From a virus: a stretch of 26,836 bases of DNA. The notes below the pieces were generated by a model, which ran no database searches, had not been told where the DNA came from, and worked only from the letters and a program-made list of their open reading frames with translations. The DNA is taken from IMG/VR virus record IMGVR_UViG_3300032217_001331, positions 1 through 26,836 of that record. One strand, 5' to 3'. Below, in pieces: positions 468-24,668 of this stretch. A program made the translations under genes and the position numbers. How positions within the stretch are numbered: the stretch's first letter is position 1; every line of letters begins with the position of its first letter.

Positions 468-731
468 TTATTTACCTTTTAATGATTTATATTTTTTTAC
501 AATATTAGCTATACCTTGAGATACAGCTTCATTAGTTTCTTCTTTAGCTTTACTTCCAGCTTTCGGACTAGTTTTTGGAGCGTTATCAGGTTTTTTAAAA
601 GGACTAGGCTTGTCAGTACCGGGTTTTGTTTTTGTTTTTTCCTTTTCAGCAGGTGCAGTTTTAGTTCCTGCTTCAGTTAATGCCTTAGCAATTTCTTCTT
701 TAATTATTTTCTTAAGATCGTTGAGTTTCAT
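468..731 (-). CDS. Small basic protein with amphipathic N-terminal helix
   Basis: This 87-aa protein is very rich in Lys, Thr and Pro. Residues 1-20 form an amphipathic helix (MKLNDLKKIIKEEIAKALTE) ending in Leu-Thr-Glu followed by Ala-Gly. The next 50 residues are a disordered Lys/Thr/Pro linker, and the last 20 (SQGIANIVKKYKSLKGK) are a second basic helix. Its start overlaps the end of the 904-aa gene by 20 bases, so the two are probably translated together. The N-terminus resembles T4 capsid-targeting sequences, with a possible (L/I)-x-E prohead-protease site after residue 20. A mature product would be a short basic peptide able to bind DNA or sit in the head. That role is inference; no named family was recognised. 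Confidence 0.75.
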   Translation of the reverse strand: MKLNDLKKIIKEEIAKALTEAGTKTAPAEKEKTKTKPGTDKPSPFKKPDNAPKTSPKAGSKAKEETNEAVSQGIANIVKKYKSLKGK

Positions 732-3459: not shown

Positions 3460-4176
3460 TTATTTCGTTTTACCCCATTTTTTACCTTTACCTTTTGTTT
3501 TACATTGAGCAGGTGTAGGACGACATGAAGGGTATTTAGCACGCTTTTCTCCTTCTTTTCTACCACATGGTTTACATTTACCATCTCTACAAGTGTTACA
3601 ATCTACCCAACCACCTTCTTTACCAGGTGCTCCTTTACGTTTGAACCAAGTACGAAGTGTTTCTTGTTTAGCTTCATTTAATATATCTTGAAATTCTTGC
3701 GGTAATTTTTTAATATTTACTAATTTAGCAGGAATTGATTTTAATTCAGCATCTATAGCTTTATTAGCTCTATGATTACCATCTATAATATATTTATAAT
3801 CTCCATTATCATCTACAATAATAATAATAGGATATTTAAAATCAGCAGCACTTAACCTATCTGATTCTATACCACCACTGTCTTTTTTAATAACTATTTT
3901 TTTAATTTTTTCAATAGGGGCTTGAATAATAGGATAATCTTTTATAATATTCAAAAGTTGTGTTAATGTTATTTTTTGTCCATTTTTTCCTGTCCAAGAT
4001 GTTTTTTGCCAATCTTCTTTTAAATCTTTCCAGATTTTACCTTGACGGCATCTAACAATAGCGCCTGATTTGTAAGCGGATGGTTTATCGTATTTGCGAT
4101 CAGCGATACGTTTGCATCGGTCAGCTTTTTTCTTTTGTTCCTTAAGGAGTTGTTTTAGTAAGTGTGTAAGTTTCAT
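3460..4176 (-). CDS. ParB-like fold protein with Cys-rich terminal modules
   Basis: I place the start at ATG 4176-4174, giving 238 aa. An upstream in-frame ATG at 4263 would overlap the previous gene by 83 bases. From 4176 the protein begins MKLTHLLKQLLKEQKKK, the amphipathic N-terminus type of neighbouring genes, four bases after the preceding stop. Residues 32-44 are PSAYKSGAIVRCR, a small module I recall in many phage proteins. Residues 110-160 contain YIIDGNHRANKAI, with D-G-N-H-R at 132-136, the signature of the ParB/sulfiredoxin-like fold that includes nucleases and nucleotide-binding proteins. The C-terminus (residues 180-238) is a basic Cys-rich module with Cys193, 196, 201, 204, 218 and 225, probably zinc-binding. 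A DNA-acting role is plausible, but enzymatic activity cannot be claimed. A potential (L/I)-x-E site is L11-K12-E13. Confidence 0.82.
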   Translation of the reverse strand: MKLTHLLKQLLKEQKKKADRCKRIADRKYDKPSAYKSGAIVRCRQGKIWKDLKEDWQKTSWTGKNGQKITLTQLLNIIKDYPIIQAPIEKIKKIVIKKDSGGIESDRLSAADFKYPIIIIVDDNGDYKYIIDGNHRANKAIDAELKSIPAKLVNIKKLPQEFQDILNEAKQETLRTWFKRKGAPGKEGGWVDCNTCRDGKCKPCGRKEGEKRAKYPSCRPTPAQCKTKGKGKKWGKTK

Positions 4177-4180
4177 TATT

Positions 4181-4819
4181 TTACCACTTTTTACAAGACC
4201 AATAATTTGCTTTCCATCTTGGTCCGGGGTTATCACAATGATGTCTTGCTCTGTAGGCGGCACGTCTTTTAGGATTTTTGGCTTTAATTACCATTCTTTT
4301 ACCTTTAGCTGACTTTCCACCAAATCCAAAGTTAACTTTTACAACTTTACCTTTAGCGTTCTTAACATATACTTTAAATTTTTTAATGTCACCCTGCATT
4401 GGTTTACCTAATTGAACCTTACGACCGTGGTATTCAGCTTCGGTTAATGTTTCAACTTCTATCATTGGTAAATCAAGTGGGACTATTTTACCTTCATACA
4501 TTCCAAAACGACCTAAATCTGTGGTTTCAAATAACTTTTTATCTTCACCTTGCAATTCAATAACTCCTTTTTTCCACAATAATCGAGCTTCATGTATTAA
4601 ATTTACATGAGCTTCAGATCCTGGCCGGAATATGTTATCATGAATAGGTAATTGATTACTTAAGTGATAACGCATGTTTTCTGATATAGGCATGCTATAC
4701 TGTTTAGACTCATTTAGCAAGGGAGCATCAGTGCATTTATCACAACCACAATCACATTTTTTCTTTTTGGGCTGCTCAGTTAATACTTTTTTAATTGCTT
4801 CTATAAGACGTTGTTTCAT
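4181..4819 (-). CDS. Cys-rich basic phage protein with CDNPGP tail module
   Basis: This is a 212-aa protein. The first 15 residues (MKQRLIEAIKKVLTE) form an amphipathic helix with a Leu-Thr-Glu site after residue 15. A Cys cluster follows (Cys22, 24, 26, 29), likely a small metal site. A middle region around residues 40-120 has no recognised fold. A second Leu-Thr-Glu/Ala site lies at 125-128. From there a basic beta-rich stretch leads to a C-terminal module with ARHHCDNPGP (191-200) and NYWSCKKW (205-212). I recall this tail module, in closely similar wording, from many marine phage proteins, where it ends otherwise unrelated proteins. It sits 20 bases downstream of the 169-aa gene and four bases upstream of the ParB-like gene, so it is part of one operon. 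The function is unknown; a packaged virion protein is my inference. Confidence 0.82.
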   Translation of the reverse strand: MKQRLIEAIKKVLTEQPKKKKCDCGCDKCTDAPLLNESKQYSMPISENMRYHLSNQLPIHDNIFRPGSEAHVNLIHEARLLWKKGVIELQGEDKKLFETTDLGRFGMYEGKIVPLDLPMIEVETLTEAEYHGRKVQLGKPMQGDIKKFKVYVKNAKGKVVKVNFGFGGKSAKGKRMVIKAKNPKRRAAYRARHHCDNPGPRWKANYWSCKKW

Positions 4820-4839: not shown

Positions 4840-5349
4840 TTATTCAGGAGTTTCTTCCTCACTCTCAGGAGCTGGTGCTTCTGGGGCTGTTTCGTCTGCT
4901 GGGGTTTCTCCTGTAGAAGGTATAAGTCCTCCTTCTTCTTTTTCGGGTTCAGCTTTACTACCATACATCAATATACGAGCAACAGATTCAATTGCTCTTT
5001 GTTCTTCATTGATGTTGCGCAAATAATATTTTTTACCTTCTATTTGAGCAACCCAAGAACGTTCAGTATAAATTAAATAAAAAAACTGTTGGTTAGTTAA
5101 AACAATTTTAAATGTAGTAGGGCGAGGAGCTACCCATTGTATGTCAGAAATAAAAAGTTCGTATTGATCTGTAAGAAAGGATGTGACAGTATCTCTTAGA
5201 GTAGGAAATTTAGACAAAAGTGGAAAAGCACCTACATCTAAGTCTGCATCTTGGGGAGTAATGTCTAATACATCCTCCTTGGTTTTATTTGCATATACTC
5301 GTTTGGCTATGCCTTGAATCTTGTCTATTAATTCTTTTTTAGTAGCCAT
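4840..5349 (-). CDS. Hypothetical protein with acidic Pro/Glu tail
   Basis: This 169-aa protein was not recognised. Residues 1-25 are a helix (MATKKELIDKIQGIAKRVYA). Residues 60-115 look like an alternating beta-strand domain (for example FKIVLTNQQFFYLIY and SWVAQIEGKKYYLRNI), followed by a helix near 120-130. The last 40 residues are a disordered acidic Pro/Glu/Ala tail, ending SEEETPE. The start follows the stop of the 192-aa gene by three bases and has no Shine-Dalgarno; an A-rich leader (ataaaaa) precedes the ATG. The position in the operon of basic, Cys-rich and tag-bearing proteins suggests a related job, perhaps an acidic partner, but nothing in the sequence proves it. Confidence 0.78.
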   Translation of the reverse strand: MATKKELIDKIQGIAKRVYANKTKEDVLDITPQDADLDVGAFPLLSKFPTLRDTVTSFLTDQYELFISDIQWVAPRPTTFKIVLTNQQFFYLIYTERSWVAQIEGKKYYLRNINEEQRAIESVARILMYGSKAEPEKEEGGLIPSTGETPADETAPEAPAPESEEETPE

Positions 5350-5352
5350 TTT

Positions 5353-5931
5353 TTATTTGTCTAAGTAGTATACTTCTTCTTCCATTTGTTGGGGTTGACT
5401 TGGAAGATTTTGCGATTGTAAATATTGGTATACTGATTCTAGGTAATCATTAGCTTTGGTAAGTTTACTTTGCACCCATGCTTCTAACTGTGTATTTTCA
5501 TCTAGCATACTGAATAATTTTTCAGCATTTTGGATTAAATTATAAAGCTCAGACTTAGCCATTTCGCCCTCATAATCCATTTCTTCACCACATCCCTCAC
5601 ACATATCGTCTTCTTTAAGTTTTACCCCACGTCCTTTTAGTATATCAGCATATGTTACTTTACCATCGCCTGTTAAGTCAGGGAATTTTTCATCAACAGA
5701 TAATTTACTCTTAATGATTTCTTTTAATCGTTCGTTGTTCATAGTTTTAACTTGCTTTTTAGCTATGTTTATTGCCGCACCCCTCATTACTCGCTCAGCT
5801 TCTCCTTTGTAGTTATTGATAAACTTTTTTCTATTTTTCTTCATAGCCTGGTAGACTTGTTCTGCTCGGTCTAATACAGACGTAGATAATTCAGGTGCTT
5901 GTGGTGTTGCGGGTTGTTCTTGGTGTGTCAT
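5353..5931 (-). CDS. Helical protein with EF-hand/dockerin-like calcium loop
   Basis: This is a 192-aa protein. Residues 15-75 are long basic helices (including GAAINIAKKQVKTMNNERLK). Residues 83-103 contain FPDLTGDGKVTYADILKGRG. Asp85, Thr87, Asp89, Lys91, Thr93 and Asp96 are spaced like an EF-hand or dockerin calcium loop. A Cys pair follows (MCEGCGEEM, Cys111 and Cys114). A helical module at 124-172 includes LEAWVQSKLTKANDYL. I recall both the calcium-loop segment and the AWVQSKLTKA module from many T4-like and marine phage proteins of unknown role. The gene is the first after the 5952-5973 hairpin, so its mRNA either starts just upstream or reads through it. Calcium binding is predicted, not shown. 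Confidence 0.8.
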   Translation of the reverse strand: MTHQEQPATPQAPELSTSVLDRAEQVYQAMKKNRKKFINNYKGEAERVMRGAAINIAKKQVKTMNNERLKEIIKSKLSVDEKFPDLTGDGKVTYADILKGRGVKLKEDDMCEGCGEEMDYEGEMAKSELYNLIQNAEKLFSMLDENTQLEAWVQSKLTKANDYLESVYQYLQSQNLPSQPQQMEEEVYYLDK

Positions 5932-5951: not shown

Positions 5952-5973
5952 ATAAGGGGTTTTACCCCCTTAT
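5952..5973 (-). terminator. Hairpin terminator after the histone-like gene
   Basis: A perfect 8-bp stem (ATAAGGGG paired with CCCCTTAT) encloses a six-base loop, 19 bases after the stop of the histone-like gene. On the minus strand it is followed by a T-rich run (TCTTATTAAATTT). It is the only clear intergenic hairpin I found in the window. It probably ends or weakens transcription between the histone-like gene and the 192-aa gene, or acts as an mRNA 3' stabiliser with partial read-through. Confidence 0.7.
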
Positions 5974-5992
5974 AACTTATTGTGATGTTCAA

Positions 5993-6166
5993 TTACTTTG
6001 CTTTGTCTTCAGCAACTGAAGCTTTACGGTATTCAGTAACCAACTTTTTAAGCTCACCAAGTGACTTGCGAGCTCTACCATGGGCTGCCTTAACTGGTTT
6101 TCCATGTTCGGTTGAAAACTCATCCCATAAACCTTGCATTTTTTCAAATAACTCTTGAGTGTTCAT
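5993..6166 (-). CDS. Histone H1-like (Hc1-type) DNA-binding protein
   Basis: This is a 57-aa basic helical protein. It reads MNTQELFEKMQGLWDEF, then a His/Lys/Pro turn, then the core KAAHGRARKSLGELKKLV and the end TEYRKASVAEDKAK. The KAA-x-x-RARK-x-x-x-E-h-x-K pattern and the final (E/K)-(Y/F)-RK-x-S closely match what I know of the small histone-H1-like Hc1 proteins common in Bacteroidota chromosomes, which are about 57-60 aa, so the length is full. These are thought to bind and compact DNA. In a phage it could cover host or phage DNA, shift host transcription or help condense DNA for packaging. The gene lies 26 bases after the 114-aa gene and is followed by the hairpin at 5952-5973, so it may be expressed as the end of a separate unit. 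The start is the only suitable ATG and has no Shine-Dalgarno. Confidence 0.85.
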   Translation of the reverse strand: MNTQELFEKMQGLWDEFSTEHGKPVKAAHGRARKSLGELKKLVTEYRKASVAEDKAK

Positions 6167-6192
6167 AGATTTTATTTTTTAATTAATATATA

Positions 6193-6537
6193 TTACATTT
6201 GCCCACCTGTTCCTGGGATTTGGGTCTTCAGGAAGAATAGGGCAGTGTTTCCAATTTGTCTTACCAATTTTTCTTTGGTTTCACTATCAGGCATTTTCTT
6301 AGCAGCATCTAAAGCCATTTGTAAGCCTTGTCCTACTTGCTTTTCGGTTGAATCTCCACCACTTAAATCCATTTCAGGAGCAGCAGGTGCATCCATAGCT
6401 ACAGGCTCATCCATTGGGATATCCAGGTTTAACTCAGTTTCTTCAGCAGATTCTTCGTCTTTTTTAAGTTTTTTTTCAAAAAGAGAAAGTTCTTCTTTAA
6501 CAAGTTGAGATATTAAAGTACGTAGTTGTTTTTCCAT
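6193..6537 (-). CDS. Hypothetical acidic helical protein
   Basis: This 114-aa protein was not recognised. Residues 1-30 are a strong amphipathic helix (MEKQLRTLISQLVKEELSLF), which resembles the N-termini of several other proteins here. Leu19-Phe20-Glu21 could be a processing site, but the match is weaker. Residues 30-70 are an acidic, Pro/Met/Ala-rich disordered stretch (LDIPMDEPVAMDAPAAPEMD). The C-terminal 45 residues form a helix (KQVGQGLQMALDAAKKM) and a hydrophobic end with the string TALFFLK. The gene follows the recurrent AT motif at 6550-6560, which overlaps the stop of the 184-aa gene, and precedes the histone-like gene by 26 bases. A small virion or scaffold-type protein would fit this composition, but that is a guess. 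Confidence 0.75.
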   Translation of the reverse strand: MEKQLRTLISQLVKEELSLFEKKLKKDEESAEETELNLDIPMDEPVAMDAPAAPEMDLSGGDSTEKQVGQGLQMALDAAKKMPDSETKEKLVRQIGNTALFFLKTQIPGTGGQM

Positions 6538-9197: not shown

Positions 9198-10037
9198 CTA
9201 CAACGAATTCTCCCAGCTTCTAAAGTACATGTTTCCATCTCTATATGCTTCTAATTCTAATTCTTGTAAATATTCGTCTTCGTTAATATTCTGTCCTTGA
9301 ATACCTTGAATTTTACCTTCAAGATTTTGCTTATGATGAATCATTTCATGAGCATATGAGCGCAATATATCTTTTGGGTGTCTGCTGCATGTATATAAAA
9401 CAATACATTTAGTATTAGGATCATAATGTGCAGTACGTCCTAATATATTAGAAGCGTTTTCTTTATCATCTTCAATAAAATTAACGTCTGGTAGGGGGTC
9501 TAAGTCTAGGCCATTATCCATCATGAACATTGTAAGGGATATTAATTTATCCCTGAATTCTTTATTATGCTCTAATCCTTTTTTAGTGATATTAGATACT
9601 ACAATCTTATCCTTATGCTTATCAACTTTAAAATCAGATGGTACTACATTTTTAATATGATCCTTATAATAGTCAACTCTATTAGAATCAGATGAAACAT
9701 TTAATTCTATATCTTGATTTTGTAGCGGTTCAAAGAAATCATTAGTAGAAGATTGTTGAGGAGTATTATCATGTCCGCATTTGTGACACATGTATAAATC
9801 ATCTCCTCCATCTTTTATTTTCCATGTCCATCCACAATTGTCACAAACAATTGAATCACCTTGAACTTCTTCATCAATAAATGAAGTTATCTCATCACCT
9901 TCATACACATATGATTCTTCAGTTGAGGGTTTAACTTTAGATAAATCTAATTTTTCTAAAATGGGACGAATTAAATCAATTGATTTTTTAGAGTATTTTT
10001 CTTCAAAATATTGTATCACATCAGATTTTTGAGGCAT
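9198..10037 (-). CDS. Zinc-ribbon HExxH metallopeptidase-like protein
   Basis: This is a 279-aa protein. Residues 62-91 are a zinc ribbon with CDNCGW (65-70), an acidic GGDD turn and MCHKCGHDN (83-91). I recall this ribbon in many unrelated phage proteins. The C-terminal part has AHEMIHHKQNLEGK (229-242), an HExxH zinc-protease motif with His230, Glu231 and His234. ELELEAYRDGNMYF (259-272) follows and probably supplies the third ligand (Glu261 or Glu263). The overall shape matches small phage metalloproteases often annotated as SprT-like or unnamed peptidases. It may process virion or host proteins; the substrate cannot be seen. The gene stands alone between two AT motifs (9170-9180 and 10051-10061), with gaps of 45 and 22 bases. 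Loss of activity is unlikely, since the motif is complete. Confidence 0.78.
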   Translation of the reverse strand: MPQKSDVIQYFEEKYSKKSIDLIRPILEKLDLSKVKPSTEESYVYEGDEITSFIDEEVQGDSIVCDNCGWTWKIKDGGDDLYMCHKCGHDNTPQQSSTNDFFEPLQNQDIELNVSSDSNRVDYYKDHIKNVVPSDFKVDKHKDKIVVSNITKKGLEHNKEFRDKLISLTMFMMDNGLDLDPLPDVNFIEDDKENASNILGRTAHYDPNTKCIVLYTCSRHPKDILRSYAHEMIHHKQNLEGKIQGIQGQNINEDEYLQELELEAYRDGNMYFRSWENSL

Positions 10038-11782: not shown

Positions 11783-12238
11783 TTAGGAAACAAAATCTTT
11801 TTTAAAAAACTTTCCTAATATATTATCGTTATAGCTATTTACAAGTAAAACACTATACTGGCATTGGTAGTGTACTTCCCAGTAGGTTAATTCTTTTTTA
11901 GTATTAACTATTTTAATAATATCTCTTTGAAATGCTAGGTTGCCGTTTAATTTTATTTCAGCTGATATTTCTTTATTGGAGCCCCAATATGTAGCCCAAT
12001 CAGATTCCTTATGTACTTTTTTAGTTGTTGCTTTACGACCAGGTCCTGATTGTTCAGCTAATTCAGCTTTAGTAAGTTTTTTCTTTATGTTATGATAAAG
12101 ACTTTTTTTACCAATGTAAAACTTACCTGTTACTCTATTTGTAATCCTATAAATGAATCCAAAACTATTCTGTGGGAAATCCTCTATAGATTTAAATTCT
12201 TTAATTTGAGCGTTTTCATACCAAAACCAGTTGTTCAT
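11783..12238 (-). CDS. GIY-YIG endonuclease (SegE-like)
   Basis: This is a 151-aa protein. The GIY-YIG fold is visible in GFIYRITNRVTGKFYIGKKS (27-46), where Gly-Phe-Ile-Tyr replaces GIY and Tyr-Ile-Gly is intact. KESDWATYWGSN (77-88) follows, then a helix with Arg105 and Trp-Glu-Val-His near 120-123; Glu121 is the likely metal ligand. The layout resembles T4 Seg-type homing nucleases and similar free-standing phage enzymes. It sits between virion genes and primase, with three and 23 bases of spacing, and may be a mobile passenger or serve phage DNA processing. No intron or intein is seen. Active-site residues appear present, so it is probably functional. Confidence 0.85.
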   Translation of the reverse strand: MNNWFWYENAQIKEFKSIEDFPQNSFGFIYRITNRVTGKFYIGKKSLYHNIKKKLTKAELAEQSGPGRKATTKKVHKESDWATYWGSNKEISAEIKLNGNLAFQRDIIKIVNTKKELTYWEVHYQCQYSVLLVNSYNDNILGKFFKKDFVS

Positions 12239-12241
12239 ATT

Positions 12242-13105
12242 TTAGAAATTTAAATTTACTTGAAATAAAGCTTCGTTATTAAAATTTTTATTATATGGTC
12301 TAGGGAGTTTAGCTGTTGCTAATAACTCATTGTTGTCATTATATAAACCAATTGAGGTAACATACGCCTGTGGATTATTATACCACTCGGGGCGTATTAT
12401 AATGCCTGAACTGCCTGAAATGAAACTTGGGTTAGCCGAGTAGTTATATTCTGAGTTTCGGGCTCTAATAAAAACTGAGTTAGTGGGGGCAGCATCTTCA
12501 TAGTAAAGTTGAAATGCAATGCCTAAGGCAGTGGGTACACTACCATTAGTTAATATGATTCCAATGTCTGGGAGGAATAGTCCATAAGCACCTGTTCCTG
12601 TTCCGTAAGAAAATCCTCCTCCGGATAAGGTAGATCCTAAAACTAAATTATATGCCCTTCCACAATTAAGCATTTGGGGTGGGTTTTTGTGACTATCATC
12701 AGTTAAATTACCAAGCCGTAAACTACCTGGAAGAAGAGCGGTTTTATATCTTGATTTATTTATTGAAATGACACTGAATAGGGTGCGAGTGGTTCCTCCC
12801 CAAATAAACTCAGCATTTTTATCTCCATACACTATGTTTCTAAGAGCCGCATAAAATTGTTTTCGTTTGCTGCTTGAACTTATTTCATTTTTGTCAACTA
12901 AAGCATAACTAAATTGCACATTAGAAGGATTACCTATGTAGTAATCAGTATACATAAGAACAGAACCAGACATATTATGTGCTGTTGTACCAAATGTAGG
13001 AAGAGTATCATATACTGGTTGATTGGAGGAACTAACCCAACATGTATCAGATGTTGAGTTAATAGAAGAAACAAAATCTAAAGAATCTATTCTAGTTAAA
13101 GCCAT
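12242..13105 (-). CDS. Virion structural protein, paralogue A
   Basis: This 287-aa protein is one of three tandem relatives. Shared blocks are SINKSRYKTALLPGSLRLGN in the middle, RARNSEYNYSANPSF near residue 213, and the end AYVTSIGLYNDNNELLATAK, followed by a VNLNF C-terminus. The protein is rich in Ser, Gly, Asn and Tyr with a beta-strand pattern and has no signal or membrane segment, as expected for an exterior tail component. I recall the same E-(F/Y)-NYS-x-NP and GLYNDNNELLA-x-AK blocks in structural proteins of marine contractile phages. It follows the 316-aa paralogue by four bases and precedes the GIY-YIG gene by three. Baseplate or tail-decoration protein is the likely role; receptor binding is possible. 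Confidence 0.78.
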   Translation of the reverse strand: MALTRIDSLDFVSSINSTSDTCWVSSSNQPVYDTLPTFGTTAHNMSGSVLMYTDYYIGNPSNVQFSYALVDKNEISSSSKRKQFYAALRNIVYGDKNAEFIWGGTTRTLFSVISINKSRYKTALLPGSLRLGNLTDDSHKNPPQMLNCGRAYNLVLGSTLSGGGFSYGTGTGAYGLFLPDIGIILTNGSVPTALGIAFQLYYEDAAPTNSVFIRARNSEYNYSANPSFISGSSGIIIRPEWYNNPQAYVTSIGLYNDNNELLATAKLPRPYNKNFNNEALFQVNLNF

Positions 13106-13109
13106 AATT

Positions 13110-14060
13110 TTATCTGTCTAAGTTTACAACTATTGTCATATCTGTGGTTCTAGTAGTAGGTACAGGTTGGGCTAGTTTACCCACTGCTAATAATTGTTGA
13201 TCATCATCATATAGTCCAACAGCTGTAATGTAAGGGGCAAAAGAAGATCCGGTTACGAAATCCCAAGTTTTTCCACTGGTATCTAAAGAACCTGTTGTTG
13301 CTAATGGGCTTATATACCCACTTCCTGAAAACATGGTTGGGTTTAGTGAGTAGTTAAATTCACTTTCTCGAATAGTGCATTTATATTGGGTTTCATAAAT
13401 TACTATAGAACTTTGAAAACTACAAGTAACATCGATGGATGATGAAAATGAAGGGACGGTTGAGGTAGTTGGAGCTGGGAATTGGGTTATTATAGCTAGC
13501 CCATGAGGATATGATATTGTTCCTGCAGGGGTAGTAGAACCTGAAAGTAAAAGTCTGCCTTCTCCATCATCTACTACTATTTTATATACACCTGTTTGCC
13601 ATTTCCATTTAAAATAGAAACTATTGGGGTTAATATAATCACCATACAATTGAGAAGGAATAGATAATACTCCTATTTGGGCGTCGGATGATGTGGGAAA
13701 ATATCTTGATTGAGATAATGTAGTTTGTAAATAATTATCAAATCTACTATGTACATTTAAAGTAGCCCCCCCTTCAATAATATTCCCATCCATATCCGTT
13801 TGGATAGTTTCACCTTCAGGATTAGGAAGTTGATTAGAGTAGTATAACTGCTTTGCGGAGGCATAAACAAGAGAAGCAGAGACTGGTTGGGGGGTGGAGT
13901 ATGTGATGTCAGTTGTGCTTCCAAAAGAAGTATTAACTCCTATACATCTAACCATTCCGCTTTCGGATATAGCGGTACCCCCATTAAAAGTAAGACTTTT
14001 ATGTGTAACTAAAGGTGTTATTATAACATCTTGTGAAGTAAGAGATTTGAAAGCACCCAT
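13110..14060 (-). CDS. Virion structural protein, paralogue B
   Basis: This 316-aa member of the paralogous trio is the most divergent of the three. The conserved C-terminal blocks are ESEFNYSLNPTMFSGSG and APYITAVGLYDDDQQLLAVG, followed by a TIVVNLDR end. Its N-terminal half differs from the other two and lacks their SRYK-x-x-x-x-PGS block, so only the last third is clearly shared. Its middle (for example SSIDVTCSFQSSIVIYETQY) is beta-rich. The divergent front part may carry the specific function, such as contact with a different tail part or ligand. Its start follows the stop of the 324-aa gene by three bases. No enzymatic motif is visible. Confidence 0.76.
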   Translation of the reverse strand: MGAFKSLTSQDVIITPLVTHKSLTFNGGTAISESGMVRCIGVNTSFGSTTDITYSTPQPVSASLVYASAKQLYYSNQLPNPEGETIQTDMDGNIIEGGATLNVHSRFDNYLQTTLSQSRYFPTSSDAQIGVLSIPSQLYGDYINPNSFYFKWKWQTGVYKIVVDDGEGRLLLSGSTTPAGTISYPHGLAIITQFPAPTTSTVPSFSSSIDVTCSFQSSIVIYETQYKCTIRESEFNYSLNPTMFSGSGYISPLATTGSLDTSGKTWDFVTGSSFAPYITAVGLYDDDQQLLAVGKLAQPVPTTRTTDMTIVVNLDR

Positions 14061-14063
14061 TCA

Positions 14064-15038
14064 TTAAAAATCTAATTTAACACGTACTAAAGCTTCCTTA
14101 GTAAAATCTTTTTTAAGCGGTTTTGATAATTTAGCTACGGCTAATAACTCATTGTTATCATTATACATTCCTACGGATGTAATGTATGTTTGAGGGTTTT
14201 GGATAAAATCATCATAGAGTATAGCACCAGCACTTGCGGAGACTGAGAAGCTTGGGTTAACTGAGTAGTTGAATTCGGCGTTTCTGGCTCGTACAAACAC
14301 AAAGTCAGATGTTACTGTTTCTTGGCTTTGGAGATAAAAACTCTTTAAACCTCCAATGAAAGTAGAAGGGTTATTATCAGCTGTGTTGGAGTTCCTATTT
14401 GTTGTTATCCCAGTTAAAGCATTTGGGTTTAAAATAGCAACCCCAACATCTGGAAATAGGTAGCCGTATACTCCACGGGATCCACTTGCTACCCCATTAC
14501 CAAAGCTACCTGATCCTAGGGTAAATCTCCTGCCAGCACTTGTATAATCAGCAACCGAAGTAATAGCGCTATTATCGGTTATTTTTACACCACTAATAAA
14601 ACTGCTACTAATTTGAATACTTCCGGGCATAATAGATTGCTTGTAACGAGCTCTATTTATTACCACAGCATAAAAGTTTCTATTTGTTGAAGTTCCACCA
14701 AAGTTAAAAGAAGCATTTTCATCTTCTCCAAACAACAAATTAATAAATTGTCCGTAAACTGTCCTTGAAGGTGATAAACCATCAACTCCAGCATTATATA
14801 ATAATGATCCAGACCCATCAGCATCACCGTATGCTACAGCAAATTGAATTTCTGCAGTAGAGTAGCTAGCTGGGTCAATGTTATAAACGTTGTAGTAATA
14901 TGGGCCACTAGGACCAGAGGTCTGGGTGGTGGAAGTGGGGAATGATGTTAAAGAAGATGAGTATCCAGTCCAAGCAGGGGCAACAATAGCTTCTGCACTA
15001 ACCAAAAAATCTTCGGGATCTAATCTTTTAAATGCCAT
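14064..15038 (-). CDS. Virion structural protein, paralogue C
   Basis: This 324-aa member of the trio is closest to the 287-aa copy. Shared blocks are INRARYKQSIMPGSIQISS, FVRARNAEFNYSVNPSF and TYITSVGMYNDNNELLAVAK, with an end of ALVRVKLDF. The N-terminus (MAFKRLDPEDF) also matches the MALTRIDSLDF start of the 287-aa protein. It is transcribed first of the three, 18 bases after the 220-aa gene. Three tandem copies suggest duplication and specialisation of a tail or baseplate component, since whole-length similarity is kept between two of them. No membrane or catalytic feature was seen. Confidence 0.78.
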   Translation of the reverse strand: MAFKRLDPEDFLVSAEAIVAPAWTGYSSSLTSFPTSTTQTSGPSGPYYYNVYNIDPASYSTAEIQFAVAYGDADGSGSLLYNAGVDGLSPSRTVYGQFINLLFGEDENASFNFGGTSTNRNFYAVVINRARYKQSIMPGSIQISSSFISGVKITDNSAITSVADYTSAGRRFTLGSGSFGNGVASGSRGVYGYLFPDVGVAILNPNALTGITTNRNSNTADNNPSTFIGGLKSFYLQSQETVTSDFVFVRARNAEFNYSVNPSFSVSASAGAILYDDFIQNPQTYITSVGMYNDNNELLAVAKLSKPLKKDFTKEALVRVKLDF

Positions 15039-22006: not shown

Positions 22007-23860
22007 TTATAAAGGTACTACACGTCCCTTAATATCAGAGTCAGGATATTTAACTTCAAAAATCATTGGATCCAATGAAGGGTAAACAATATTATTTTGA
22101 GTTGCACCAGCAATATCATAAGCAAATGGAGAATATCCTAAGCTAGTACCTACTTTATTAGTAATACTAATTGCTTTAACTGTTTGGACACCATCAATTT
22201 TGTCTAACATAATGTATAAATCTCTCAATACAATTGGTTCGTTAATTTGCCATTTGTCAATTTCAAAATAACTTTTTAAAGCACTAATACAATTAATTAA
22301 TACTTCACTATTATTATATTCCGGAAGTACAATGAGATCAAAATCTACTCCAATATTGATGGTATAAGCATCTCTGATTCTAATAGTATCATTGATTACT
22401 CTATATTGGGATAAGTATGTTTTTAAATTATTTTTTAAAGCATCAGATGCTGTTTTTAGCTGTTTACTATTGTTGTAAGCTAAAACATACAGGTCTAATG
22501 TAGATGGGGTTTCACCAGGAAGAATATTTTCTAATTTTTCTGGTTCAAGGTATATTTTGGCGATTGAGCCATACTTTGAAGGTAAACTTAAAGCTCTAAT
22601 TAAATAGTCATCTTGAGTTACCGTTCTTAATTGAGTACCAAATGCTGCTAATGAATTAAATCTTAATTCATCAACTGTATCACCATCTTTACCTCCGGTA
22701 GCTGCTAAAGGATTAGTAACTGTTACTGAGCCTAAAACTCGGCTTCGTAAACTTGGATTTAATCCGGCTGCGGCAAATGTAATATTTTTAGTATCAACTA
22801 TAGTAGTAATAGAATTAGCGGGTACATTAGCTGATACTCCCCCGCCTGTTAAGTAACGAACTGTTAATGTTGTGTTGTAAGGAGCAATACCGTAAGTACC
22901 TGTATATAAGAAGTTAGCTGGGTCAAATGCGGTATATAGAAATGAATTACTTGGACTAGTAAGATTTAAACCTACATTAGTTGGATTAGGAATAATTTCT
23001 TCATCATTGTTCTGGGTGTTGGTTCCTGCTCCAAATTGAATTTGCATTGTGCTAGGGGAAGTGAATCTTGTTACAAATCTTCTTGGGGCTTTTAATAATT
23101 GTAACAAATATGGTGTATCACCTGAGCTGTTTGGGTTAGTGTTAGTTATAGTATCATAAATAGTTTCTTGGGCAAGATATGGGGCTTCATACCATTCATT
23201 ATCATCACTATCCATTATATCTAGAACCTGTATGATATTTGAGTCTTCAATTTCTATTGTTTGAAAACGTTCAGGAGCTCCAAATGAAAAATTAATAGAT
23301 GTTACGTTAGCAGAAATTGCTTGTCTAGTTTTTTTAAGAAGGAAAAAATCAGGTACACCACCAACTGTGCTGTAAATTGTAATTTGAGTAGGGTCAGCTG
23401 AGCTTGAAAACGCAAAGTCTACAGGATCTTGCATTATAAAACCTGTAGCTCCGTTTAGATTAGATGATAATGAAGTATTAGCTGCTATTTGTACAGTGTA
23501 ATTAAAATCAGGAACCCATGTACCTCCAGTTAACTTAGCAGGTACTTGTTGATATATGTCTACAGAAGCTAAAGCTACACCTGTAACTTTAGGTACGTAG
23601 CCTAGCATGTATGCTAATGTATATAAATTATTTTGTTGGCGAGCAAATTGAACAAAATTTTCTTGAATTTGGTTATCAAGATAAAATGACATTACATCAC
23701 CAACATATGCTGACATTTCCAAGAACAACATGCCTGGGGATGAAGGTGAAAAGTCATTATACGTGCTGGGGAAATATGTTTTGGTATACTCAATAAGGGC
23801 ATTCCTTAATTCGCCAAAATCTTTATTTATATATTTTATATCTCTATTTTCAGTTGCCAT
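22007..23860 (-). CDS. Baseplate wedge protein gp6-like (Baseplate_J family)
   Basis: This is a 617-aa protein. The N-terminus (about 14-85) has NKDFGELRNALIEYTKTYFP, FLEMSAYVGDVMSFYLDNQI and NNLYTLAYMLGYVPKVTGVA, typical of T4-type gp6. The middle is a Baseplate_J-like beta domain. The C-terminal region has LDLYVLAYNN, IRIRDAYTINIGVDFDLIVL and EPIVLRDLYIMLDKIDGVQT. The length is close to T4 gp6 (660 aa). In contractile tails gp6/gpJ forms the wedge backbone ring around the hub. It overlaps gp25 by one base (TAATG), giving the conserved gp25-gp6 order. Confidence 0.92.
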   Translation of the reverse strand: MATENRDIKYINKDFGELRNALIEYTKTYFPSTYNDFSPSSPGMLFLEMSAYVGDVMSFYLDNQIQENFVQFARQQNNLYTLAYMLGYVPKVTGVALASVDIYQQVPAKLTGGTWVPDFNYTVQIAANTSLSSNLNGATGFIMQDPVDFAFSSSADPTQITIYSTVGGVPDFFLLKKTRQAISANVTSINFSFGAPERFQTIEIEDSNIIQVLDIMDSDDNEWYEAPYLAQETIYDTITNTNPNSSGDTPYLLQLLKAPRRFVTRFTSPSTMQIQFGAGTNTQNNDEEIIPNPTNVGLNLTSPSNSFLYTAFDPANFLYTGTYGIAPYNTTLTVRYLTGGGVSANVPANSITTIVDTKNITFAAAGLNPSLRSRVLGSVTVTNPLAATGGKDGDTVDELRFNSLAAFGTQLRTVTQDDYLIRALSLPSKYGSIAKIYLEPEKLENILPGETPSTLDLYVLAYNNSKQLKTASDALKNNLKTYLSQYRVINDTIRIRDAYTINIGVDFDLIVLPEYNNSEVLINCISALKSYFEIDKWQINEPIVLRDLYIMLDKIDGVQTVKAISITNKVGTSLGYSPFAYDIAGATQNNIVYPSLDPMIFEVKYPDSDIKGRVVPL

Positions 23861-24327
23861 TATAGTGTAATTTGAATATTTTCAGGAGTGTTTCCTAAAT
23901 ATGAATAATTTATAGATAATTGTATAGCATTTTCTTCATATATGGGAGTTAAAGCTACTCCATTTATTTTAACTGTAGGGAAATTTGTTGATAAGTCATT
24001 AGTAATTTTAATTTCTAAACCTTTTAAATTACTGTCAGTTATGTTTTCGAATAATTGACTTTGTAAATTAGAACCAAAACTGGGGTTAAGCATCCTTTCA
24101 CCTTTATTAGTCAACAAAAAATTAATCATGTTTGACTTAACTTGATCAACAGTAGTATATGTTGAATTAAATACTGAAGTTCCTGTAGTTAATGATGGGT
24201 TAAACCCAGATCCTGTGTATAGTGGGGTGCCCGTATTAGTAGCGCCACCATTAAAAGGAATAGAAACCCCAACAGCTACTCGCTGGTTTAAGTCTAAAGG
24301 GTTTTGATTTGCTATTCTAATCGCCAT
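23860..24327 (-). CDS. Baseplate wedge protein gp25-like (GPW/gp25 family)
   Basis: This is a 155-aa protein. The family core runs through residues 55-125: TTVDQVKSNMINFLLTNKGE, then RMLNPSFGSNLQSQLFENI, then TNFPTVKINGVAL. The Leu-x-Thr-x-x-Gly-Glu-Arg-x-x-x-Pro-x-Phe-Gly-Ser core is the key signature. In T4 this protein joins the sheath-initiating end of the wedge. The N-terminal 45 residues are Gly/Thr/Asn-rich and flexible. It overlaps both neighbours by one base (TAATG), so the 113-aa protein, gp25 and gp6 are translationally coupled. Length is slightly above T4 gp25 (132 aa). Confidence 0.93.
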   Translation of the reverse strand: MAIRIANQNPLDLNQRVAVGVSIPFNGGATNTGTPLYTGSGFNPSLTTGTSVFNSTYTTVDQVKSNMINFLLTNKGERMLNPSFGSNLQSQLFENITDSNLKGLEIKITNDLSTNFPTVKINGVALTPIYEENAIQLSINYSYLGNTPENIQITL

Positions 24328-24668
24328 TATTTAGTCATTAACCCCATTATTTGATTTAAACTTACTTCACCACCAGGTAAACTTGAACCTTCACCTATTG
24401 TACTAATAGGAGGAGGAGTGTATGCTTGTTGGACATGTGATGAGTTGGCAGAAATTGTAGTATCAAATTCACCACCAATCATGCTACGCAAGTTACGTTT
24501 AATGTCTGGGTTAAGGTTTGTTTTTGTAGTATAAGGAATAGGGTTAGCATTTTCAGTAACTACAGTTTTAGGAGAACGTACTGCTTCAAGAAGTATATCT
24601 TTAATTTCTTCTTGAATTGCTTCACGAACTGCTTCTTTAATTAACTTTTTTAAAAAATCTGTTTTCAT
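24327..24668 (-). CDS. Small helical protein with capsid-targeting-like N-terminus
   Basis: This 113-aa protein was not recognised. The first 30 residues are a charged amphipathic helix (MKTDFLKKLIKEAVREAIQE, then EIKDILLEAV) holding two or three (L/I)-x-E sites: Ile10-Lys-Glu12 before Ala13, Ile18-Gln-Glu20, and Leu26-Leu-Glu28 before Ala29. The rest is flexible and Pro/Ser/Asn-rich, with an end LNQIMGLMTK. The gene starts two bases after the AT motif at 24671-24681, so little leader exists. It is coupled by TAATG to gp25. This may be a baseplate-assembly helper rather than a head protein, which tempers the capsid-targeting reading. Confidence 0.76.
   Translation of the reverse strand: MKTDFLKKLIKEAVREAIQEEIKDILLEAVRSPKTVVTENANPIPYTTKTNLNPDIKRNLRSMIGGEFDTTISANSSHVQQAYTPPPISTIGEGSSLPGGEVSLNQIMGLMTK

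What the first reader, a model, noticed from the sequence alone, without database searches (positions are those of the whole stretch)
5993..6166. Phage-encoded Bacteroidota histone H1-like protein
The 57-aa product has the KAA-x-x-RARK core and RKxS end of the small Hc1-like histones of Bacteroidota chromosomes. A phage copy suggests DNA compaction, host transcription control or help in packaging, and it identifies the host phylum. It is followed by the only clear terminator here, which suggests regulated expression.
Basis: partly seen in the sequence, partly recalled or inferred. Interest (0 to 1): 0.72.

Follow-up and report, generated by a model that had tools for sequence, protein, structure and literature searches.

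The report
Phage-borne Hc1 histone-H1-like mini-protein
A large tailed phage carries a real, conserved gene for a 57-residue bacterial 'histone H1-like' (Hc1) protein; the kind is already reported from phages, but here it forms a phage-specific family, usually sits among the late virion-building genes, and lacks the tail with which the chlamydial protein binds DNA.

Summary
The gene is real: a 57-aa ORF on the MINUS strand (6166..5993), Pfam Hc1 PF07432 at 40.7 bits (cut-off 23.5), under purifying selection (median dN/dS about 0.22). Hundreds of IMG/VR contigs encode relatives.

The protein falls in a supported phage clade with a four-residue-shorter loop, not among the few Bacteroidota Hc1s sampled; its nearest cellular relatives found are Neomarinimicrobiota. 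So Hc1 does not identify the host phylum. Kinship with Flavobacterium phage immuto and absence of Shine-Dalgarno sites (0/29) fit Bacteroidota better. AlphaFold2 gives a two-helix hairpin with a conserved basic stripe on helix 2. The lysine-rich tail that binds DNA in chlamydial Hc1 is missing; only the domain reported to dimerise is present.

Relatives of this clade mostly lie co-directionally in the late structural cluster; two lineages have it between head-maturation protease and scaffold/major capsid genes. Best reading: a dimeric, weakly basic DNA-binding protein made late that condenses phage DNA for packaging (inferred). PF07432 in phages is published (PMC12619734): a new member of a known kind.

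The parts
5993..6166 (-). Hc1 (PF07432) gene, 57 aa: helix 3-21, loop, helix 26-56; conserved basic residues K26, R31, R33, K34, K40, K41, R47, K48, K55 on helix 2
   Evidence: Pfam hit; alignment A3; AF2 pLDDT 97.3; charge moment; dN/dS
5952..5973 (-). Stem-loop 3' of Hc1 (8 pairs, loop 6), then a T-rich tail: candidate terminator or mRNA 3'-end element
   Evidence: same-position hairpins in L002-L009, L035, L037, L074, L112, L123, L138. RNAalifold keeps 6 pairs but shows no double compensatory change
6181..6195 (-). TAATATATATTAATT upstream of Hc1 (its first three bases are the stop codon of the upstream gene): AT-rich element seen in close relatives as TAATTTATATTAA; possible promoter, unproven
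   Evidence: upstream sequences printed (L002, L004-L007, L009, L035, L037)
6193..6537 (-). Upstream neighbour (cluster c2, 114 aa), conserved beside Hc1 in type-A loci; N-terminus MEKQLRTLISQLVKEE
5353..5931 (-). Downstream neighbour (cluster c0, 192 aa), conserved beside Hc1 in type-A loci
   Evidence: no informative PHROG
4840..5349 (-). Cluster c6 protein (169 aa), next gene in type-A order c2-Hc1-c0-c6-c3
22007..23860 (-). Baseplate wedge subunit: marks the window as part of a contractile-tailed phage structural cluster; closest isolate is Flavobacterium phage immuto (48%)

Best explanation
The gene encodes a tail-less Hc1-type nucleoid protein of a T4-like phage related to Flavobacterium phage immuto. 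The chain folds as a helical hairpin (predicted). By analogy with the N-terminal domain of chlamydial Hc1 it probably dimerises (inferred), so that basic stripes on the second helices can contact nucleic acid (inferred from conservation). In this clade it is made with the late structural genes (inferred from co-directional neighbourhood) and most likely binds newly replicated phage DNA, condensing or shielding it before or during packaging, perhaps staying in the head (inferred). Family membership, purifying selection, the phage-specific clade and the late-cluster position are shown; DNA binding, timing and virion presence are not.
For: PF07432 over cut-off. Relatives in hundreds of viral contigs, one copy in each of 15 large records, all of which were chosen because they carry the gene. 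AF2 hairpin, pLDDT 97.3. Basic residues conserved at 82-100% across 85 sequences and segregated on one face of helix 2, opposite the hydrophobic face (p about 0.01 by column shuffling), with helix 1 acidic. In types A, B and C it lies on the strand of TerL-portal-protease-MCP or of the tail cluster. Two separate tree lineages place it between the head-maturation protease and scaffold/MCP, 1.4-1.7 kb from the MCP in three large contigs.
Against: Net charge is small (-1.3 to +4.8 among the relatives listed), and the DNA-binding tail of chlamydial Hc1 is absent. In the immuto-type and marine long-loop lineages Hc1 lies about 63-84 kb from the MCP, beside GroEL in immuto, so the head-cluster link is not universal. 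The gene is patchy: Microcystis phage Mel-JY01 has related primase, capsid and baseplate genes but no detected Hc1, and only 2 of 21 TerL-bearing fragments carry it, most of which do not span the region. No proteomic or expression data were found.
Confidence: 0.45

Rival explanations
1. Host take-over protein: it joins or displaces the host's own nucleoid proteins to silence or compact the host chromosome or repress transcription.
For: Chlamydial Hc1 represses transcription and compacts the E. coli nucleoid (PMC2848022; PMC12619734). Lak and prophage-like copies are of host type. In immuto, marine and prophage-like lineages it lies outside the head cluster, near DNA-metabolism or chaperonin genes.
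Against: In the window's clade it sits with late structural genes and has diverged as a phage clade from the sampled Bacteroidota Hc1s, not what simple mimicry of those would give.
Confidence: 0.27
2. A protein-protein module (dimerising helical hairpin) with no nucleic-acid role, for example an assembly or scaffold helper or chaperonin-linked factor.
For: Only the domain reported to dimerise in chlamydial Hc1 is kept; it lies next to prohead protease and scaffold in type C and next to GroEL in immuto; many small helical hairpins share the fold.
Against: The most conserved residues are the basic stripe K26/R31/R33/K34/K41/R47/K48/K55, unusual for a pure dimerisation hairpin.
Confidence: 0.18
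3. A cargo gene of no fixed function, picked up from hosts and moved about the genome by recombination.
For: Several unrelated positions and patchy presence.
Against: dN/dS about 0.2 and near-invariant core residues over a very divergent clade.
Confidence: 0.1

Closest known systems
Moraphage histone H1-like protein (PF07432), PMC12619734 (2025)
   Same: Same Pfam family; encoded by large aquatic tailed phages; a packaging role was suggested there too
   Different: Lineage comparison not tested here; that paper gives no structure, tree or gene-order analysis of Hc1 in the passages read
Flavobacterium phage vB_FspM_immuto_2-6A gp196 (hypothetical protein)
   Same: 58% identical over the full length; same supported phage clade; the isolate most similar to the window in primase and baseplate too
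   Different: Follows groES-groEL about 84 kb from the MCP; scores 21.0 bits against PF07432, below the cut-off
Lak megaphage and Bacteroidota Hc1 ('histone H1', 57-59 aa)
   Same: Same tail-less hairpin domain and K..RARK...RK.S core
   Different: Loop KGNKAAG(T/Q)RARK is four residues longer; separate branch (97/91)
Neomarinimicrobiota chromosomal Hc1
   Same: GE(I/M)KKLVTxYRKASVA signature shared with the phage clade
   Different: Chromosomal, beside genes such as htpG by inspection of sequence; keeps the longer loop GNKAAG
Chlamydial Hc1 (HctA)
   Same: Homologous N-terminal domain, the part modelled by PF07432
   Different: HctA has a lysine-rich C-terminal DNA-binding tail; absent here

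Membership tests
Pfam PF07432 (Hc1) | Whole-protein score above curated cut-off (23.5 bits) | tested here: met
   40.7 bits, E=2.2e-10, profile positions 2-56 of 57
Pfam PF07432 (Hc1) | Conserved core K..xRARK...K....RK.S | tested here: met
   K26, A32, R33, K34, K41, R47, S50 invariant in A1, which includes Bacteroidota plasmid copies
Chlamydial Hc1/HctA | Lysine-rich C-terminal nucleic-acid-binding domain | tested here: not met
   Protein ends at residue 57; at most 3 further residues in 85 aligned relatives; domain roles from PMC2848022
Chlamydial Hc1/HctA | N-terminal dimerisation | not testable with these tools
   Only monomer prediction available: helical hairpin
Bacteroidota chromosomal H1-like proteins | Groups with Bacteroidota Hc1 in a tree | tested here: not met
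   Falls in a 99-row clade (100/95) apart from the 26-row branch with Bacteroidota/Lak (97/91); Bacteroidota sampling limited to 5 plasmid copies plus prophage-like contigs, 61 columns
H-NS family | Match to an H-NS profile | tested here: not met
   No such Pfam hit even at E<=10
Eukaryotic linker histone H1 | Winged-helix globular domain | tested here: not met
   Two-helix hairpin in AF2
T4-type internal head protein | Phage-specific N-terminal capsid-targeting peptide ending in (L/I)xE | tested here: inconclusive
   Phage copies start MNTQELFE (L6 and E8 conserved), but plasmid copies also have LxE near the start
T4-type internal head protein | Present in virions | not testable with these tools
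   No proteome found; the one paper found for host LMO8 does not mention immuto

The most novel reading that the evidence does not exclude
A T4-like phage lineage turned a bacterial nucleoid protein into a head-morphogenesis factor: the tail-less Hc1, made between prohead protease and scaffold, coats or organises the packaged genome inside the capsid, a phage counterpart of chromatin proteins in giant-virus particles.
Probability: 0.15. Interest if true: 0.7.

Novelty: new member of a known kind. Interest (0 to 1): 0.36.

Why it matters
Tailed-phage DNA is usually thought to be packed without histone-like proteins. A small H1-like gene that is common in environmental viral contigs and repeatedly sits with head genes makes it testable whether some phages use a nucleoid protein in packaging. 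The immuto phage, an isolate with a lab host, carries a copy. The copy is annotated hypothetical and lies below the Pfam cut-off, so such genes are likely under-counted.

Tried and rejected
(1) Overlapping + strand ORF 5982-6158 as the real gene: rejected, the Pfam hit and selection are on the minus-strand frame. (2) N-terminal capsid-targeting peptide: LxE also occurs near the start of host-type copies, so no support. (3) Hc1 as a host-phylum marker: rejected as it stands. (4) Fold search: no match with E<=0.001 in PDB or BFVD; the top BFVD hit is a viral 'Histone H1' (TM 0.92, E 0.14), not significant for so small a fold. (5) PDB sequence search: nothing. (6) NCBIfam: nothing over cut-off; PHROGs: nothing better than E=0.018. 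(7) Hc1 as a core gene of the lineage: not shown, 2 of 21 TerL fragments, incomplete contigs. (8) TATTTATA motif before Hc1: not above background.

Full report
Observation. The ORF at 5993-6166 lies on the minus strand. It scores 40.7 bits against PF07432 (cut-off 23.5); NCBIfam gives nothing over its cut-off and PHROGs nothing better than E=0.018. Codon comparison of 40 same-length relatives gives a median dN/dS of 0.22, so the gene is functional.

Distribution. In annotated phages the relatives are Flavobacterium phage immuto (58%, 'hypothetical protein'), a 634 kb uncultured phage and, with a Bacteroides-plasmid query, 15 Lak megaphage records, Dulem virus 40 and, at weak significance, cyanophage S-SRM01, whose record already says 'histone H1'. 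PF07432 in four complete moraphage genomes was published in 2025 (PMC12619734), with a packaging suggestion. The kind is therefore known.

Family tree. With 168 sequences (61 columns, rough supports) the window lies in a 99-row clade (100/95) with the loop shortened by four residues. Bacteroidota plasmid copies, prophage-like contigs and Lak form another branch (97/91). Neomarinimicrobiota genomes (7 of 120 sampled have a PF07432 match over the cut-off) carry Hc1 with the signature GE(I/M)KKLVTxYRKASVA. In several the neighbours look chromosomal by inspection of sequence: HtpG, DNA polymerase I, S-adenosylmethionine synthetase. One of the seven (G059, locus L165) looks like a phage contig instead. 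Hence Hc1 does not point to Bacteroidota by itself. Independent hints do: the closest isolate for Hc1, primase and baseplate wedge is immuto, and none of 29 window genes has a Shine-Dalgarno-like site, as is usual in Bacteroidota (own knowledge). But the next closest isolate, Mel-JY01, has a Microcystis host.

Structure. AF2 gives helices 3-21 and 26-56 at pLDDT 97.3. Across 85 sequences K26, R31, R33, K34, K40, K41, R47, K48 and K55 are basic in 82-100% of rows. The basic moment of helix 2 exceeds column shuffles (p about 0.01) and points away from the hydrophobic face; helix 1 is net acidic. [quoted passage not shown] The phage protein is only the former, so compaction is plausible but unproven.

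Neighbourhood. In the window the order is c2-Hc1-c0-c6-c3 (type A), conserved in many contigs. Type B has Hc1 followed by an oxidoreductase and, five to seven genes on, TerL and portal. Type C has portal, head-maturation protease, Hc1, a scaffold-like gene, MCP (the scaffold gene is named by position and sequence, no PHROG hit). Type C occurs in two places of the tree. In 13 large viral contigs and immuto the MCP is homologous: Hc1 lies 1.4-1.7 kb from it in type C, roughly 17-27 kb in type A contigs read linearly, and 63-84 kb in marine long-loop and immuto-type phages. The head link is thus a feature of the window's clade, not of all phage Hc1 genes.

Regulation. A hairpin lies 15-21 nt after the stop codon in the window and 14 relatives of its clade, with differing inner pairs; RNAalifold on the MAFFT alignment keeps six pairs without double changes. 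It may be a terminator or mRNA stabiliser; the T-run is weak.

Verdict. Real, conserved and phage-borne; a new member of a known kind. Packaging or DNA condensation is the best-supported reading at moderate confidence; host silencing and a pure assembly role remain open.

Noticed in passing
window minus strand: TATTTATA starting near plus-strand 3445, 6551, 9171, 10052, 15739, 21993, 24672: TATTTATA on the coding strand is about 18-fold enriched in the 40 nt before gene starts in the window and 6- to 13-fold in relatives: a candidate phage late promoter, mirror of T4's TATAAATA. Hc1 itself has only a loose match.
   Followed up: partly
window 468-731, 3460-4176, 4181-4819, 6193-6537, 24327-24668 (minus strand): Several structural-cluster proteins begin with a similar amphipathic basic peptide (MKxxLxxLIKEEV/IxKxL), possibly a shared targeting or assembly tag.
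   Followed up: no
window 12242-15038: Neighbouring genes 12242-13105 and 14064-15038 are paralogous (cluster 76) and flank 13110-14060, which looks similar: a possible expanded tail-fibre or receptor-binding set.
   Followed up: no
window 11783-12238 and 9198-10037: By sequence, a GIY-YIG-like endonuclease (GFIYRITNRVTGKFYIGK) and a zinc-metallopeptidase-like protein (HEMIHH motif) between tail and Hc1 regions.
   Followed up: no
window 3460-4263: Protein with a weak ParB-like match and a cysteine-rich C-terminus (CNTCRDGKCKPCGRKEGE) in the Hc1 neighbourhood.
   Followed up: no
L173, L178, L180, L181: Prophage-like contigs with host-type Hc1 a few genes after 725-aa and 258-aa genes: possibly Mu-like transposase A/B, so a separate early-region placement of Hc1.
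   Followed up: no
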